From: an uncultured delta proteobacterium
GTDB taxonomy: Bacteria; RBG-13-61-14; DRUE01
Length of the DNA stretch: 5,665 nucleotides
NCBI GenBank assembly: GCA_903930515.1
Contig: CAIYYW010000400.1
Location: 1-5,665 of the forward strand
Direction of reading: 5' to 3'
Shown here: positions 152 through 5,665 of the stretch, piece by piece
How positions within the stretch are numbered: position 1 is the stretch's first letter
Layout of the letters: every line of letters begins with the position of its first letter
Translations under genes and position numbers: made by a program
Notes under the pieces: generated by a model
The model's database searches: none
Told to the model about the DNA's origin: nothing
What the model saw: only the letters and a program-made list of their open reading frames with translations

Positions 152-601
152 ATGAAGGAAGAGAAAGGGAAGGATAAATTGCGGGGACTGGCCGAGTTGG
201 TATTGGACCCGATTTATTTATCAGAGGCGGAGAAGGGGATTATAGACCGGCAATTGGAGGAAGGTCAGGGGAAGGACTTGGACCCGCTGATCGCGAATTA
301 TGTGCTTTTGGTTAATCAATTCCCGTTCATCTCCACGATCCGGAGTTGCGAGGGTCACGGGTATCCCGGGCATATTTCGTTCCGCTTTTTCAAAGAGTGG
401 CACGAGCGATTTATGGAAAGGGGAATCCGGGAATTGATTGGAAAAAAGGTATGCCATATTTATTTGGAAGCCGGAACCTGGTTGAAGACTACCAGCGGGA
501 TTTATTTCAGATGGAACGCTAAATTTTCAGAAGAAAAGCGGGACGATTTTTTCCGGGAATTCATCAATTGGCTGAGGCTGGAATCCGGCAAAAAAGACTG
601 A
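152..601 (+). CDS. Uncharacterised 149-aa protein with SCEGHG motif
   Basis: Function unknown. The N-terminal third is charged and probably helical. The most distinctive stretch is residues 50-78: a hydrophobic strand or helix followed by N-Q-F-P-F-I-S-T-I-R, the motif S-C-E-G-H-G (65-70), then a short strand I-S-F-R-F. I recall uncharacterised phage and bacterial proteins with a similar 'N-x-x-P-x-I-x-T-x-x-S-C-x-G-H-G' pattern, so Cys66 and His69 may bind a metal or be catalytic; this is inference from memory. A second Cys-His pair is at 101-102 (V-C-H-I-Y). There is no signal peptide or membrane segment. ATG at 152 directly follows the purine run AGGGGGAG (144-151), which is closer than usual; an in-frame TTG at 179 after AGGGAAGGA is a possible alternative start. 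Separated by about 300 AT-rich bases from the next gene, so probably its own unit. Confidence 0.7.
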   Translation: MKEEKGKDKLRGLAELVLDPIYLSEAEKGIIDRQLEEGQGKDLDPLIANYVLLVNQFPFISTIRSCEGHGYPGHISFRFFKEWHERFMERGIRELIGKKVCHIYLEAGTWLKTTSGIYFRWNAKFSEEKRDDFFREFINWLRLESGKKD

Positions 602-894: not shown

Positions 895-1056
895 ATGCTT
901 AAATTTCCGTTGAAGGCGGTCAAGGTTTTGTGGGACGAGTATCGGATGGCGCGTCAGCTTAGAAGGGGCTGGTGGTGGCTGATCTATGAGGTTGATCCTC
1001 CGGGCTGGTTTATGCGGTATGAGTTGGGGATGGAAGTGGAAGATGGAGATCGTTGA
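895..1056 (+). CDS. Small tryptophan-rich protein, 53 aa, function unknown
   Basis: A short gene supported mainly by its ribosome binding site: GGAGG at 884-888, six bases before ATG 895, the best Shine-Dalgarno spacing in the window apart from the terminase. The product is basic at the N-terminus, with a Trp-Trp-Trp cluster at residues 26-28 (R-R-G-W-W-W-L-I-Y), then P-P-G-W-F near residues 35-39 and an acidic tail (M-E-V-E-D-G-D-R). It is too short and charged for a clear membrane segment. No family is recognised. Its end overlaps the start of the next gene by 14 bases in another frame, which suggests the two are translated together from one mRNA. It could be a small phage accessory or regulatory protein. 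Confidence 0.55.
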   Translation: MLKFPLKAVKVLWDEYRMARQLRRGWWWLIYEVDPPGWFMRYELGMEVEDGDR

Positions 1057-1420
1057 ACCGAAGGATGGGGTTGAGCGGAAAAAGGATCAGCTGTCGGAAA
1101 TAGAGCGGGAGTTGGAGGCGATCAAGCAGGTGTTGCTCCGGGAGATCGTGACCCGGACCCAGGCTGGGGCGGAAATGGACGAGGCATTGCTCAAGAAGAT
1201 TGCCGGTTATTTGAAGGTGGTGCAGGGGTTGGCCGGGGTGATCCGGATGCGGAGCAAGGAGCCGAGGGAGGTTGAGGGTGTGATGGCTCTGCGGTTGGTC
1301 TGGGAGGTCCTGGAGGGGATTCCTAAAATTCAGAGGTTGCTTTCGGACCCCGCGATCAAGTCGCAAATCCTGAAGGCGGTTCAAGAGCGGATGAAGGAAA
1401 AAGCGAGGTCTCAATCGTAA
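1043..1420 (+). CDS. Uncharacterised 125-aa helical protein
   Basis: The start at ATG 1043 (M-E-I-V-E-P-K-D) is chosen because upstream in-frame ATGs at 986 and 1019 lie inside the preceding small gene; the purine-rich GGAAGTGGAAG just before 1043 can act as ribosome binding site. The product is almost all helix. Residues 10-37 are a highly charged, probable coiled coil (K-K-D-Q-L-S-E-I-E-R-E-L-E-A-I-K). A middle helix K-K-I-A-G-Y-L-K-V-V-Q-G-L-A-G-V-I-R follows, and the C-terminus is basic. There are no cysteines and no catalytic motif. Size, helicity and position near a terminase would fit a terminase small subunit or another small phage structural protein, but nothing in the sequence proves this. 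Its last ten bases overlap the 3' end of the opposing radical SAM gene. Confidence 0.65.
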   Translation: MEIVEPKDGVERKKDQLSEIERELEAIKQVLLREIVTRTQAGAEMDEALLKKIAGYLKVVQGLAGVIRMRSKEPREVEGVMALRLVWEVLEGIPKIQRLLSDPAIKSQILKAVQERMKEKARSQS

Positions 1421-2628
1421 GTGCAGTTGCAATATTGTTTTGCGCCCGGAAGGTTCAGGGCCTTGTGCATCTTTTCCGTCTCCTTGCACAGGCCGATTCG
1501 GATATGGCGCAGGCGCGAGATCAGGCGCTGATATATTTCCAGCCGAAGCTCAAACGGGATCCGCATCCTTCCGTCCGGGTCGGATTGGTCGGTGGCGAAG
1601 TTGAAAATGTCCGATTCGGGCGCGTGGTTTTTCAGGGTGGGGAAAAAGCGGAGCGAGCCCAGGGTGACGGTTTCCGGCCGGACCGCGTTGATTTCGTCAA
1701 TCAGGGTGTCGTAGAAATTTTCCCAGCCCGGAACCGGGATGATCGGATCGATCCGGAGCCGGATCTTCCAGCCCAACTCCTTGAGCCGCCTGGCCGCGGC
1801 CAATCTCGCTTCCGGCCGGGCCGAGCGTTTCTCGTATTTTCCGGAAACTTCCGAGGCGTTGATGGAAAAACTTACGATCACCTGCGGGGTTGGCGGGAGC
1901 TTGATCAGCTCGGAGATCTGGGTGGACTTGGTGAGGAAAAGCAGACGGTGCTTATTCTGGGCGGCGAAGAGCGGGACCAGGTTGGCGGTCAGGTTGATCT
2001 CGGAATCCCAGACCAAACTGTCCGAGAGCTCGCCGGCGTTCAGGACCGACGGTTCGGGGGTGGAATAAAGCCAGTCGCGGATCTCCTGATACATCCGGGC
2101 GGTATTGGAAAAAACCGTGGGCTCCGGCCAATGCCGGAGGGTCAGGTAAAGGTAACAGTAGTCGCAGCGGAACGGGCAGCCGTTGGCGAAAGCGAGGATA
2201 TGGAAATGCGGGCAGACGATCCCGGGCGGGGTTTTGTCAAAGTAATGAATGAACCCGGTATGCCTCCGGCGGAGCACGAACCCGAGCTTGCGCTGCTTCT
2301 TCTTGTTCAGACTGAAGAGCGGCTCGGAATCCTTTTCCTCCTTGACCCGCTTCGCCGCGCCGTAGGTGCCCATGGTTTTATGCGCCTTCCAGGCCCGGAT
2401 GGAGCCCTCGCGGACCCCGAATTTCTCAGACACCTCCGCCAGGGTCAGGCCCGGATTCTCCTCAATGAAATCCATCACCTGGTCGCGCAAGCCGGATGCG
2501 GCCTTCCGATACTCCGAACGAAGGGTGCGGCTTTGGGATTCCTGAAGCTCGTCCTTGGCCCGCTCCGCCTCCAGCTCCAAATCCAATTCGGGTTTGGTCA
2601 GTTTATCTTTTTCCCGGTCTTTCACCAT
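1411..2628 (-). CDS. Radical SAM protein, spore photoproduct lyase family, with N-terminal HTH
   Basis: A 405-aa protein in two parts. Residues 1-45 are charged and probably coiled coil. Residues 47-82 form a helix-turn-helix (L-T-L-A-E-V-S-E-K-F-G-V-R-E-G-S-I-R-A-W-K) like those of phage terminase small subunits. From about 115 onward it is a SplB-like radical SAM domain: the C-x3-C-x2-C cluster motif is Cys151, Cys155, Cys158 (N-G-C-P-F-R-C-D-Y-C-Y), which binds a [4Fe-4S] cluster and S-adenosylmethionine. It continues with G-E-L-S-D-S-L (199-205), the strand R-I-D-P-I-I-P (292-298), G-L-C-K-E-T (379-384) and a terminal C-N-C (400-402). Spore photoproduct lyase repairs a thymine dimer in DNA by radical chemistry. 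By eye the position of its hydrogen-donor cysteine (Cys141 in B. subtilis) is not cysteine here, so the substrate is probably different. Ribosome binding site GGAAAG lies six bases upstream of the ATG. Divergent from the methyltransferase operon. Confidence 0.9.
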   Translation of the reverse strand: MVKDREKDKLTKPELDLELEAERAKDELQESQSRTLRSEYRKAASGLRDQVMDFIEENPGLTLAEVSEKFGVREGSIRAWKAHKTMGTYGAAKRVKEEKDSEPLFSLNKKKQRKLGFVLRRRHTGFIHYFDKTPPGIVCPHFHILAFANGCPFRCDYCYLYLTLRHWPEPTVFSNTARMYQEIRDWLYSTPEPSVLNAGELSDSLVWDSEINLTANLVPLFAAQNKHRLLFLTKSTQISELIKLPPTPQVIVSFSINASEVSGKYEKRSARPEARLAAARRLKELGWKIRLRIDPIIPVPGWENFYDTLIDEINAVRPETVTLGSLRFFPTLKNHAPESDIFNFATDQSDPDGRMRIPFELRLEIYQRLISRLRHIRIGLCKETEKMHKALNLPGAKQYCNCTYD

Positions 2629-2678: not shown

Positions 2679-3314
2679 ATGTTTCAAAGCAAAACCAAAG
2701 ATAATTCCAGCCTATCTTTGAAGATCCTGCTCCGGAAAAGTTTCCTGGGAATCGGAGCGGTTCCCAAAAGGGTCGCCCTGGATTTGTTCTCGGGCAAGGG
2801 GGAGATCGCCCGGAGGGCGTATCTGGATTTTCCGGAGCTTCATTTGGTGGAAAAAAATCCCCGGCAGGTGGAACTGCTGAAGGCCGGATTTGCCGGTTTG
2901 ACCCGGGCGCGGATTTGGGAGATGGATAATCTGGAATTCCTGCAAAAGCATCTGCCCGGATTTCCCGGACTGAGCCTGGTGGACTTTGACGCTTACGGCT
3001 CGCCCAATAAACAGATTCAGGCGTTTTTTTCCGCCTGCAAAATCCGCGAACCGATCCTGATTTTCGCCACGGACGGAGGGGTGCTGGCCACGATCCGGGG
3101 CAGGGGCATTTCCCCGGATTTGTATCTGGCCGGCTCGGACCAGGGATGGGGCGCCGGATATGACCCGGTGATCGGACGGAATTATGAGCGGATGATCAGA
3201 TGCTTCTGGGACGAGCTCTCTAAAAGGCACAACTTCCGGATTGAGCTGTTCAAGATTATCTGGAAAAAAGGAGGTCAGCTGGCATATTATGGATTGCTTA
3301 TCAAACCCCGCTGA
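2679..3314 (+). CDS. Class I SAM-dependent methyltransferase with Trm1-like motif
   Basis: A 211-aa Rossmann-type methyltransferase. The SAM-binding motif I is A-L-D-L-F-S-G-K-G (33-41); strand 2 ends in V-E-K-N (57-60), where the acidic residue normally contacts the ribose hydroxyls of SAM. M-D-N at 82-84 follows strand 3. The motif IV region is V-D-F-D-A-Y-G-S-P (101-109). D-P-F/Y-G-S-P at this place is typical of Trm1 tRNA guanine-26 dimethyltransferases, whereas DNA adenine methyltransferases carry D/N-P-P-Y. An RNA or nucleobase exocyclic-amine target is therefore possible, but the protein is much shorter than Trm1 and lacks its C-terminal domain. A conserved-looking T-D-G-G is at 131-134. 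ATG 2679 was chosen because upstream in-frame starts lie inside the divergent gene; the ribosome binding site (AGG at 2666-2668) is weak. The gene ends 26 bases inside the ParB-like gene, so the two are probably translationally coupled. Confidence 0.8.
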   Translation: MFQSKTKDNSSLSLKILLRKSFLGIGAVPKRVALDLFSGKGEIARRAYLDFPELHLVEKNPRQVELLKAGFAGLTRARIWEMDNLEFLQKHLPGFPGLSLVDFDAYGSPNKQIQAFFSACKIREPILIFATDGGVLATIRGRGISPDLYLAGSDQGWGAGYDPVIGRNYERMIRCFWDELSKRHNFRIELFKIIWKKGGQLAYYGLLIKPR

Positions 3315-3966
3315 GAAAGCGATTGAGTTCAAGTGGCTGAAGACCGACGAACTCCGGCCCAATCCCTGGAACCCGAACCGGATGAGCCAGGAGATGATCA
3401 GGAAATTGTCCGCGGAGATAAAAAAGTCCGGAATGATCCTGCCGATCGTGGTCCGGCCGGAACCAAGCAATGTTGCAGGCGGGCCACCGGGGCCGCCCCA
3501 GAATTTTTTCCAGATCATTGACGGAGAGCATCGTTGGCTGGTGGCGAAAGAACTCGGGATGGATTTTGCTCCCTGCATCATCGTTCAACTCAGCGAGTCC
3601 GAGGCCCGGATCAAGACCATCCAGCTCAATCGCCTGCGGGGCGAGGACGACCCGGAATTGCTGGCGCGCTTGCTGCGGGACCTGGTTCTTGAACTCGGGG
3701 CAATGGAGCTTGGCGCGCGCCTGCCGTTTGATCCTGTGGAAATTAAACAGACCCTGGAACTCCTGGAATTGCAGGCCGAAGAATCCCGGGAAAAATTGGA
3801 CCGGGAAATGAAGGAGATGCTCAAGCAGCGGATCTTCTCCGTGATCGTCACCGAGCCGGAAAAGGCCCTGATTGAATCAGCCATCTTCCGGCTCCAGTCC
3901 CAACTCGGCTCAACCATCCGCCCCGGAAGCGCGATGGCGAAAATCTGCGAAAAATATATTTCGTAG
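3289..3966 (+). CDS. ParB/Srx-fold domain protein
   Basis: A 225-aa ParB-like protein. Residues 13-34 hold the typical opening (W-L-K-T-D-E-L-R-P-N-P-W-N-P-N). A helix and strand follow (L-S-A-E-I-K-K-S-G-M-I-L-P-I-V-V-R-P), then the signature I-I-D-G-E-H-R-W (76-83), equivalent to the G-E-R-R box that in chromosomal ParB binds CTP. Residues 100-120 (S-E-S-E-A-R-I-K-T-I-Q-L-N-R-L-R-G) fit the end of the domain. The long ParB HTH and dimer domain is not evident; the C-terminus instead has V-T-E-P-E-K-A-L-I-E-S-A-I and ends A-M-A-K-I-C-E-K-Y. Such short forms are common beside phage terminases and may bind or nick DNA. Residues about 59-71 (rich in Gly and Pro) look like an insertion between two strands. 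AAGGAGGT (3268-3275) lies 13 bases before ATG 3289, rather far; a TTG at 3241 is a less likely start. Terminase follows after 24 bases. Confidence 0.87.
   Translation: MDCLSNPAEKAIEFKWLKTDELRPNPWNPNRMSQEMIRKLSAEIKKSGMILPIVVRPEPSNVAGGPPGPPQNFFQIIDGEHRWLVAKELGMDFAPCIIVQLSESEARIKTIQLNRLRGEDDPELLARLLRDLVLELGAMELGARLPFDPVEIKQTLELLELQAEESREKLDREMKEMLKQRIFSVIVTEPEKALIESAIFRLQSQLGSTIRPGSAMAKICEKYIS
3470..3500 (+). repeat. GC-rich in-frame insert in the ParB-like gene
   Basis: About 30 bases dominated by G and C, with outer arms GGCGG (3478-3482) and CCGCC (3493-3497) able to pair. They encode the Gly/Pro-rich stretch between V-V-R-P and I-I-D-G-E-H-R, where ParB-like proteins normally have a tight turn. 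This looks like a short palindromic element captured in frame, but only one copy is in the window. Confidence 0.35.
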
Positions 3967-3990: not shown

Positions 3991-5400
3991 ATGGAAATGT
4001 CTATGCTTGGGGAGTTGGAACGGATGCTTTCGGAGAACGCTGAAAAACCGGAGGAGCTTGCGAACGCGGACGAATTTATCAGCGAGGTCCTGGGGTATCA
4101 GTTGGAAAGCTTTCATCGGGAATGGATGGAGATCCAGAAGGGGAATAAAAAAAGCTTGATCCTGGCTCCGCGCGGTCACGGCAAGAGCACCATTTGCACA
4201 ATCGCCTATCCGCTCTGGCGCCTGCTTAATGACCCGGACCTGCGAGCGCTCATTGTGTCCAATACCAGCGCCCAGGCCTGCGCGTTCCTCCGCGAAATCC
4301 GCGCGCACCTGGAATCCAATCCCTGGGTCTGCGAAAATTTCCGAAACCTCGCCGGCCATCCCTGGACCGAAAGCGAGCTGGCGATCTCCCTGCGCCAACG
4401 GCAAAGCAAAGAGGCCAGCATCACCGCCCTGGGCGTGCTCGGGCCCGTGATTTCGCGGCATTATGACCTGATTATCCTGGACGATATCGTGGACGAGGAA
4501 AACGCGCGGAGCGCCAAACAAAGGGAACGGCTCCTGCTCTGGTATTACAAGGTCTTGCAACCGTGCCTGGAGCCGGAAGGCGAGCTTCATATCGTGGGCA
4601 CCCGCTATCACTATCTGGATTTTTATGGGCATTTGATTGCGAATGATTTTGCGAACGCGCATTGGATTTACCGCGCGATTGAGCCGGCGGAAGATGTAGG
4701 GGCTGGGCTTGCCCGGCCCGAGGTTGCCCTATGGGAAAAAAAATTCCCGCTTGCCCTGCTCAAGCAGATCCGGAAGGAGGCCGGCCCGGCGATTTTCAAT
4801 TCCCAGTACCAGAACGATATTGAACTGATGAAAGGAGTGATCTTCAAGGAGGAGTGGATTCTATACGCGCAGGACTTGCCTCCCCGCTTGGAAAAAATCA
4901 TCGGCATTGACCTGGCGATCAGCGAAAAGGAACAGGCGGATTATTTCGCCATGGTGGTGGTGGGCCTGGAGAGAGAAAGCGGCAAAATATATGTCCTGGA
5001 TTCCTTCCGCGACCGACTAAGTTTCCAGAGCCAAATCCAGCAAAGCATACGCCTGTTCCAAAAACATGACCTGCCCCGCTCGCCCGTGGTCCGGGTCTGC
5101 GTGGAATCAAATGGTTACCAGGAAGCCTTTGCCCAGAAGCTTAGAACTGAAGGCCTGCCCGTAAAGTCGGTTAAAACGATCAGGGACAAAATCTCCCGCG
5201 CCTATCAGCTCCAGGCCAAATTTGAAAACGGAGAGATCCTATTCCCTTGCCGGCGCGCCCAAGACTTGATTGAAGAACTCATCCTCTTTCCCGAAGCCGA
5301 ACACGACGACCTCTTTGACGCCCTGGAACTCGCCGTCTCCAATGCCAGAACCTTTCTCAATCCCTTCCCCGCGCCCCTCCCCGATGTGGACCCGGAATAA
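3991..5400 (+). CDS. terL: Phage terminase large subunit (ATPase and nuclease)
   Basis: A full-length 469-aa packaging motor. The N-terminal ATPase has the Walker A motif A-P-R-G-H-G-K-S-T (59-67), a strand R-A-L-I-V-S-N-T (85-92), Walker B L-I-I-L-D-D (160-165) followed by acidic residues D-E-E-N, and the coupling motif G-T-R-Y-H (203-207). The C-terminal RNase H-like nuclease has its three expected acidic sites: Asp307 (I-G-I-D-L-A), Glu372 (V-E-S-N-G-Y) and D-D-L-F-D (439-443). In phages this protein cuts concatemeric DNA and translocates it into the procapsid through the portal. The linker between the two domains carries a nine-residue insertion (236-244) encoded by a hairpin element. All catalytic residues I can check are present, so the gene looks functional. 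It is the third gene of the plus-strand operon. The terminase small subunit is not obvious nearby, and no portal gene follows in the remaining 265 bases. Confidence 0.95.
   Translation: MEMSMLGELERMLSENAEKPEELANADEFISEVLGYQLESFHREWMEIQKGNKKSLILAPRGHGKSTICTIAYPLWRLLNDPDLRALIVSNTSAQACAFLREIRAHLESNPWVCENFRNLAGHPWTESELAISLRQRQSKEASITALGVLGPVISRHYDLIILDDIVDEENARSAKQRERLLLWYYKVLQPCLEPEGELHIVGTRYHYLDFYGHLIANDFANAHWIYRAIEPAEDVGAGLARPEVALWEKKFPLALLKQIRKEAGPAIFNSQYQNDIELMKGVIFKEEWILYAQDLPPRLEKIIGIDLAISEKEQADYFAMVVVGLERESGKIYVLDSFRDRLSFQSQIQQSIRLFQKHDLPRSPVVRVCVESNGYQEAFAQKLRTEGLPVKSVKTIRDKISRAYQLQAKFENGEILFPCRRAQDLIEELILFPEAEHDDLFDALELAVSNARTFLNPFPAPLPDVDPE
4696..4722 (+). repeat. 27-base hairpin element in frame inside terL
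   Basis: GGGCTGGGC (4700-4708) and GCCCGGCCC (4711-4719) form a nine-pair stem with one G-U wobble around TT. With the flanking GTAG and GAG it resembles a dispersed intergenic hairpin repeat that I recall from candidate-phylum genomes. It spans exactly nine codons (residues 236-244, V-G-A-G-L-A-R-P-E) in the linker before L-W-E-K-K-F-P, where related terminases usually have only a short loop. The analogy is with Rickettsia palindromic elements, which also insert in frame. The element family is inferred. Confidence 0.55.
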
Positions 5401-5535
5401 TTAAACTCCTCACCGCAAAGAGCGCAGAGCGCGCAAAAAAATCAAATGTCTTTCTCACCGCCGAGGCGCAGAGTTCGCAGAGAATTCAATTCAATCTTTC
5501 ACCACAAAGAGCGCAAAGGACGCAAAAAATTGGTC

Positions 5536-5563
5536 TGAGATATGAGATTTGAAATTTGAGATT
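5536..5563 (+). repeat. Heptamer tandem repeat, four units of TGAGATT
   Basis: Four consecutive 7-base units, TGAGATA, TGAGATT, TGAAATT and TGAGATT, differ from the consensus at two positions in total. The array sits between the third and fourth copies of the longer repeat. Confidence 0.75.
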
Positions 5564-5579
5564 CAGCGCAACGCGCTGA
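5563..5579. repeat. Palindrome TCAGCGC-AAC-GCGCTGA
   Basis: Perfect seven-base arms around a three-base loop, directly after the heptamer array. There is no T-tract, so it is more likely a repeat element than a terminator. Confidence 0.6.
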
Positions 5580-5619
5580 TGCACCGCAGAGGCGCAAAGA
5601 ACGCAATGAATTCTTAGGG

Positions 5620-5639
5620 CACAGACACTCTTGTCTGTG
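5620..5639. repeat. Palindrome CACAGACA-CTCT-TGTCTGTG
   Basis: Perfect eight-base arms (5620-5627 and 5632-5639) around a CTCT loop. It resembles dispersed GGCACAGACA-type hairpins that I recall from uncultivated bacterial genomes. It could form an RNA hairpin in either direction, but no T-run follows. Confidence 0.65.
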
Positions 5640-5665
5640 AACAGTTTTAACCAGAGGCAACATAT

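What the first reader, a model, noticed from the sequence alone, without database searches (positions are those of the whole stretch)
1411..2628. HTH fused to a spore-photoproduct-lyase-like radical SAM enzyme lacking the canonical catalytic cysteine
Seen: a helix-turn-helix (residues 47-82) precedes a SplB-like domain with C-x3-C-x2-C at 151/155/158. Known: B. subtilis SPL uses Cys141, 43 residues after its last cluster cysteine, as hydrogen donor. Here the matching place reads N-A-G-E-L-S-D-S-L, with no cysteine. Inference: this is a different subfamily, guided to DNA by its own HTH, that may modify or repair a base other than the spore photoproduct, in a phage packaging context.
Basis: partly seen in the sequence, partly recalled or inferred. 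Interest (0 to 1): 0.62.

Follow-up and report, generated by a model that had tools for sequence, protein, structure and literature searches.

The report
DNA-binding radical SAM enzyme gene cassette
A rare bacterial lineage carries a small chromosomal gene cassette built around a radical-chemistry enzyme that looks like a known UV-damage repair enzyme but lacks that enzyme's usual catalytic cysteine, has gained its own DNA-binding domain, and sits beside methyltransferase-like, ParB-like and phage-motor-like genes, so it probably modifies DNA or RNA rather than repairing spores.

Summary
On the minus strand of 1411-2628 lies a 405-residue protein with an N-terminal helix-turn-helix (helices up to 57, 63-70, 74-85) and a spore-photoproduct-lyase (SPL) fold (Z 26 against SPL crystals). 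The residue opposite SPL Cys140/141 is Glu200. Lacking that cysteine is not peculiar to this gene: 'G-E-[LI]-x-D-S-L' is the rule in about 85 relatives in bacteria, archaea and viruses. The relatives share four further cysteines (139, 381, 400, 402), perhaps a second metal site. At least 50 of 78 sampled relatives are fused or adjacent to TcmP, a methyltransferase-like partner. The window's clade has no TcmP nearby; it has the HTH, a different methyltransferase-fold protein (ORF4), and ParB-like and terminase-like genes. These four core genes recur in a same-genus and a same-order genome under purifying selection. The phage-packaging reading is weak: host dispersed repeats follow the terminase gene, and in the order relative the cassette lies among housekeeping genes. 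Best explanation: a DNA-directed, nucleic-acid-modifying (possibly defence) cassette, substrate unknown. Loss of Cys141 alone does not exclude photoproduct repair, because a clostridial SPL uses another cysteine.

The parts
1411..2628 (-). HTH + SPL-like radical SAM protein, 405 aa (P0002)
2374..2499 (-). helix-turn-helix, residues 44-85; conserved W-K-A-H-[KRQ]-T-M-G-T-Y at its end
   Evidence: AF2 helices; alignment A7; same motif at the C-terminus of methyltransferase-like viral proteins
1417..2256 (-). radical SAM domain with SPL fold, residues 125-404
2155..2178 (-). CxxxCxxC [4Fe-4S]/SAM motif, C151/C155/C158
   Evidence: invariant in alignment
2029..2031 (-). E200 in N-A-G-E-L-S-D-S-L, the place of SPL Cys140/141
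   Evidence: alignment; E in 85 of 86 aligned relatives
2212..2214 (-). Cys139, invariant; possible H-atom donor or metal ligand
   Evidence: the genome scan pattern contained this residue, so its invariance is partly selected
1486..1488 (-). Cys381 in L-C-K-E-T, invariant
1423..1431 (-). C-terminal C-N-C (Cys400, Cys402), invariant
2679..3314 (+). ORF4: class I methyltransferase-fold protein (motifs LDLFSGKGE, VEKNP, VDFDAYGSPN), distant similarity to TcmP
3289..3966 (+). ParB N-domain protein
   Evidence: PF02195 E 1e-12; PHROG ParB-like families
3991..5400 (+). terminase large subunit-like ATPase/nuclease (Walker A APRGHGKST, Walker B LIILDDI)
   Evidence: PF17289, TIGR01630, phrog_38 E 2e-99; nearest phage terminases about 30% identical
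1043..1420 (+). ORF2: small protein converging on the radical SAM gene; homologue at the same place in G002
   Evidence: BLASTP E 1e-7, 32%
5401..5665 (+). dispersed host repeats directly after the terminase-like gene
   Evidence: 30 places in the host assembly

Best explanation
This is a radical SAM enzyme of an SPL-fold subfamily that normally works together with a methyltransferase-like partner on a nucleic acid. In this lineage it has an HTH, probably to bring it to DNA, and works with ORF4 (in the place of TcmP), ParB-like and terminase-like proteins in a compact chromosomal cassette. Proposed steps. (1) The HTH and the ParB-like protein select DNA [inferred]. (2) The 151/155/158 cluster cleaves SAM to a 5'-deoxyadenosyl radical [from family knowledge]; E200 sits where other radical SAM enzymes have the SAM-binding 'GGE' glutamate, so the catalytic-cysteine site of SPL is here probably an ordinary SAM-binding residue [inferred from alignment and memory of the motif]. 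(3) The radical takes a hydrogen from a base or sugar; Cys139/381/400/402 may hold a second Fe-S or zinc site that supplies sulfur, electrons or structure, or Cys139 may return a hydrogen [inferred]. (4) ORF4 methylates or otherwise finishes the change [inferred]. (5) The terminase-like motor/nuclease translocates on or cuts DNA according to the mark, which would make the whole a modification or defence cassette [speculative].
For: SPL fold (Z 26.4) with E200 for Cys140 and family-wide G-E-x-x-D-S-L (85 of 86). TcmP fused in 11 and within 3 kb in 39 of 78 relatives. TcmP is TIGR04474 and matches PADLOC candidate-defence models PDC-M30A. ORF4 has a class I methyltransferase fold with best Foldseek match tRNA methyltransferase Trm1 (model pLDDT 69.6) and a collinear, weak profile match to TcmP (prob 63, E 7e-5). 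Gene set rSAM-ORF4-ParB-TerL is kept in G001 and G002, with ORF2 also seen in G002, under purifying selection. A distant genome, G121, has a related module of two radical SAM proteins, ParB, an ORF4 homologue and 2-thiouracil desulfurase. ParB also adjoins archaeal/viral members L081 and L110. The same W-K-A-H-x-T-M-G-T-Y HTH ends methyltransferase-like proteins of viral contigs. A few relatives lie next to type I restriction genes, YhcG nuclease or Schlafen AlbA.
Against: No substrate, no activity and no DNA binding shown. ORF4-TcmP homology is weak. RNA is as possible as DNA for both TcmP and ORF4. The contig is only 5.7 kb and its neighbours beyond the repeats are unknown. SPL itself repairs DNA, and loss of Cys141 does not exclude repair (SPL(Ca)).
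Confidence: 0.5

Rival explanations
1. DNA repair enzyme: a photolyase-like radical SAM enzyme that reverses spore photoproduct or a related thymine lesion, using another cysteine (Cys139 or a C-terminal one) as hydrogen donor, with the HTH giving DNA affinity.
For: SPL fold; Y157 and Y159 match the SPL Tyr97/Tyr99 pair by position; SPL from C. acetobutylicum uses Cys74 rather than Cys141 (PMC5368176); Cys139 lies 12 residues before the first cluster cysteine.
Against: TIGR04070 score far below cut-off; recurrent methyltransferase-like partners, also in archaea and viruses that make no endospores; Y157 is W in 65 of 87 relatives; four extra invariant cysteines absent from a true SPL.
Confidence: 0.15
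2. RNA modification: rSAM plus methyltransferase-like partner act on tRNA or rRNA; the HTH and the ParB/terminase genes are regulatory or accidental neighbours.
For: ORF4's best fold match is the tRNA methyltransferase Trm1 and many others are RNA methyltransferases; 2-thiouracil desulfurase and a PP-loop sulfurtransferase-like protein in related cassettes.
Against: HTH fusion, ParB and terminase-like genes all point to DNA; gene set conserved across an order.
Confidence: 0.2
3. Phage packaging module: remnant or satellite in which the HTH replaces the small terminase subunit and the enzyme marks DNA for the terminase.
For: Terminase-like gene present in all three clade members; HTH weakly resembles small terminase HTHs (PHROG E 0.09-0.9; NCBIfam E 0.12).
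Against: No capsid, portal or tail gene; terminase followed by host repeats; G002 cassette among AIR synthase, pyrD-like, pilin and DisA-domain genes; weak HTH matches are shared with transposases and repressors.
Confidence: 0.1

Closest known systems
Spore photoproduct lyase (SPL, SplB; PF20903, TIGR04070)
   Same: radical SAM CxxxCxxC, SPL fold over 99-382, Tyr-Cys-Tyr around the last cluster cysteine
   Different: Glu200 in place of Cys140/141; N-terminal HTH; four extra cysteines; far below the equivalog cut-off; TcmP-family and cassette context instead of spore genes
SPL-like radical SAM partners of TcmP (TIGR04474, three-Cys-motif partner), fused or adjacent in bacteria, archaea and viruses
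   Same: G-E-[LI]-x-D-S-L, V-C-P-H-F, L-C-K-E-T, C-terminal C-N-C; about 31-42% identity; methyltransferase-like partner
   Different: HTH fusion; no TcmP in the host genome; ORF4 in its place; terminase-like gene
P0006-like radical SAM proteins with 2-thiouracil desulfurase (L023, L118)
   Same: same four extra cysteines; ParB and ORF4 in the same cluster
   Different: G-K-L-Q-D-G-L in place of G-E-L-S-D-S-L; no HTH
Phage terminase large subunit (phrog_38, TIGR01630)
   Same: Walker motifs and RNaseH-like nuclease domain in the cassette's last gene
   Different: no small subunit gene and no structural genes nearby

Membership tests
Spore photoproduct lyase | Radical SAM CxxxCxxC cluster motif | tested here: met
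   C151/C155/C158
Spore photoproduct lyase | Cys140/141 hydrogen donor | tested here: not met
   E200 in the aligned column; another donor cysteine not excluded
Spore photoproduct lyase | Tyr97/Tyr99 pair next to the cluster | tested here: met
   Y157 and Y159 in this protein; Y157 not general in relatives
Spore photoproduct lyase | Equivalog score (TIGR04070 cut-off 400 bits) | tested here: not met
   89.6 bits
Spore photoproduct lyase | SPL fold | tested here: met
   Z 26.2-26.4, rmsd 2.6-2.8 over 272-275 residues
Spore photoproduct lyase | Repair of 5-thyminyl-5,6-dihydrothymine | not testable with these tools
   needs enzyme assay
TcmP-partnered SPL-like radical SAM proteins | Sequence signature (E200, C139, C381, C400, C402) | tested here: met
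TcmP-partnered SPL-like radical SAM proteins | TcmP fused or adjacent | tested here: not met
   no TIGR04474 match in G000; ORF4 only weakly TcmP-like
Phage terminase module | Large subunit gene | tested here: met
Phage terminase module | Structural phage genes nearby | tested here: not met
   none in window; G002 flanks are housekeeping genes
Phage terminase module | HTH of the radical SAM protein is a small-terminase HTH | tested here: inconclusive
   only sub-threshold matches
BREX type 4 / Dnd phosphorothioation | PglZ, cysteine desulfurase and other core genes | tested here: not met
   none in the cassette by PADLOC, Pfam and NCBIfam; only a BrxP-like PP-loop gene in the G001 variant

The most novel reading that the evidence does not exclude
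A new DNA modification-and-restriction type system in which an HTH-guided radical SAM enzyme with a second metal site and a methyltransferase-fold partner install an unknown base or sugar mark, and a domesticated terminase motor-nuclease with ParB acts on DNA by that mark.
Probability: 0.15. Interest if true: 0.85.

Novelty: new variant of a known kind. Interest (0 to 1): 0.55.

Why it matters
Of this fold, only SPL has a solved structure in the PDB copy searched and a known reaction. A large sister group, present in bacteria, archaea and viruses, lacks its catalytic cysteine, has four other conserved cysteines and keeps company with methyltransferase-like proteins, yet no assigned reaction was found for it. 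The HTH fusion gives a concrete handle (a DNA-binding domain and a five-gene cassette) for asking which nucleic acid is the substrate.

Tried and rejected
SPL proper: rejected on score and residue. Prophage: no structural genes, host repeats after the terminase-like gene. My first reading of a phage cement protein next to L035: not supported by Pfam and dropped; its D12 DNA methyltransferase neighbour stands. ORF4 in viral contigs: none found. The full protein in phage records: no match. Literature on TcmP with a radical SAM partner, or on radical SAM with ParB/terminase: nothing found in the open library. Rfam and tRNA genes in the window: none. Viral structure library: only distant radical SAM matches. 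A careful tree did not finish; the quick tree was used. A hit of the genome scan in L022 turned out to be the HTH alone, on an unrelated methyltransferase-like protein.

Full report
WHAT IS THERE. The finding's ORF is real and lies on the minus strand, 2628 to 1411 (405 aa). The window is the whole contig C400 of a 3.6 Mb, 401-contig assembly. Other genes: ORF1 152-601 (+, orphan), ORF2 1043-1420 (+), ORF4 2679-3314 (+), ParB-like 3289-3966 (+), terminase large subunit-like 3991-5400 (+). The radical SAM gene is divergent from the ORF4-ParB-terminase block. The last 265 bases are repeats found at 30 places in the host assembly.

THE PROTEIN. Pfam SPL matches at 67.5 bits (cut-off 27), NCBIfam SPL at 89.6 (cut-off 400), so it is SPL-like but not the SPL equivalog. 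The alignment to solved SPL puts E200 of NAGELSD on Cys140 of the Geobacillus enzyme. AlphaFold2 with 82 sequences gives pLDDT 89.4; the model matches SPL crystals at Z 26.2-26.4, rmsd 2.6-2.8, 272-275 residues, the next non-SPL entry being at 15.9. Residues 44-85 form a three-helix HTH with high confidence.

THE FAMILY. A scan of 84,980 species genomes gave 74 loci and a viral scan 4. In 87 family sequences E200 is E in 85 (one K, one gap); C151/C155/C158 are invariant; C139 (85 of 85 present), C381 (84 of 84), C400 and C402 (82 of 82) are invariant as well. Caveat: the scan patterns contained C139 and C151, so their invariance in scan hits is partly selected; C381, C400, C402 and E200 were not in the patterns. 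Against a wider set, the four extra cysteines are shared by the TcmP-linked proteins, the window clade and a P0006-like group; chromosomal 'GTGELADSLA' proteins keep only some; a true SPL (L018, 'FEAACTSD') has none. So glutamate at this place is the usual state and the SPL cysteine the exception in this sample. From memory, many radical SAM enzymes have a 'GGE' motif here that binds the SAM amine; I infer that A-G-E is that motif.

PARTNERS. TcmP (TIGR04474) is fused to the radical SAM domain in 11 of 78 loci and within 3 kb in 39 (contig ends and divergent TcmP hide others). TcmP matches PADLOC candidate defence models PDC-M30A. The host genome has no TcmP. Beside the window gene is ORF4, whose model (pLDDT 69.6, three sequences) is a class I methyltransferase, best Foldseek match Trm1 E 2.6e-8. 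ORF4 aligns end to end with TcmP at probability 63, E 7e-5: suggestive only.

CONSERVATION OF THE CASSETTE. The same-genus genome (G001, L023) has HTH-rSAM, ORF4, ParB, then a second ParB, a PP-loop PAPS-reductase/BrxP-like protein, a 2-thiouracil desulfurase (PF04463), two more radical SAM proteins and the terminase-like gene. The same-order genome (G002, L024; Deltaproteobacteria bacterium RBG_13_61_14) has ORF2, HTH-rSAM, ORF4, ParB, terminase, flanked by AIR synthase, acetyltransferase, dihydroorotate dehydrogenase, pilin and, on the other side, a DisA-domain protein, response regulator, amidohydrolase, alanine dehydrogenase. Its DisA-domain neighbour lies on another contig (C394) in G000, where no cassette adjoins it, so the place differs. 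Substitutions between window and G001 are mostly synonymous (dN 0.17-0.30, dS 0.8-1.25). In 290 and 386 surveyed genomes ORF4 and the HTH are otherwise nearly absent, except G121, whose cluster is MerR-like, radical SAM, ParB, ORF4 homologue, 2-thiouracil desulfurase, P0006-like radical SAM. The quick tree places the G002 protein (as stand-in for the HTH clade) beside a Zixibacteria protein without HTH (L035, SH-aLRT 90), which has a D12 DNA adenine methyltransferase as neighbour, apart from the TcmP clade (99).

THE HTH. Its end W-K-A-H-[KRQ]-T-M-G-T-Y recurs at the C-terminus of proteins in three viral contigs (152 kb, 393 kb and 18 kb) whose front part reads like a Rossmann methyltransferase (L022, L126, L127) but hits no Pfam (L022 only tested), NCBIfam or PHROG family. 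Within the radical SAM family the HTH was seen only in the window clade.

HOW IT MAY WORK. Shown: architecture, predicted fold, residues, conservation, neighbours. Inferred: HTH targets DNA; E200 binds SAM; the cluster generates the deoxyadenosyl radical; the four cysteines hold a second metal site or Cys139 donates hydrogen; ORF4 is the methyltransferase partner; ParB and terminase-like proteins act on DNA. SPL(Ca) works with Cys74 in place of Cys141 (PMC5368176), so the missing cysteine alone cannot decide between modification and repair; the partners and distribution favour modification.

VERDICT. Observation confirmed; interpretation partly supported; the packaging context is not. A new variant (HTH fusion, new cassette) of an uncharacterised but widespread SPL-like family.

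Noticed in passing
L022:6858-8204, L126:5053-6141, L127:4972-6087: Viral proteins with a methyltransferase-like front and the same W-K-A-H-x-T-M-G-T-Y HTH at the C-terminus; no family match found in the libraries searched.
   Followed up: partly
L023:1966-6527 (G001:C729): Between ParB and the terminase-like gene: second ParB, PP-loop/BrxP-like protein with ferredoxin-type end, 2-thiouracil desulfurase and two radical SAM proteins; suggests sulfur-related nucleobase chemistry.
   Followed up: partly
L118:7377-12205 (G121): Related module in a distant genome without terminase: MerR-like, radical SAM, ParB, ORF4 homologue, 2-thiouracil desulfurase, P0006-like radical SAM.
   Followed up: partly
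L028:6451-8655 (G002:C96): A 735-codon open frame fuses a PA0069-like and a P0006-like radical SAM protein.
   Followed up: no
L024:11678-12887 (G002): The terminase-like gene reads in two frames, with masked bases between; possibly frameshifted.
   Followed up: no
L081, L107-L110: Archaeal and viral-contig members carry one or two radical SAM genes with TcmP; L107 also encodes a capsid and a cement protein, so some members are truly viral.
   Followed up: partly
window 152-601: ORF1, 149 aa, no significant family match in any library searched.
   Followed up: no
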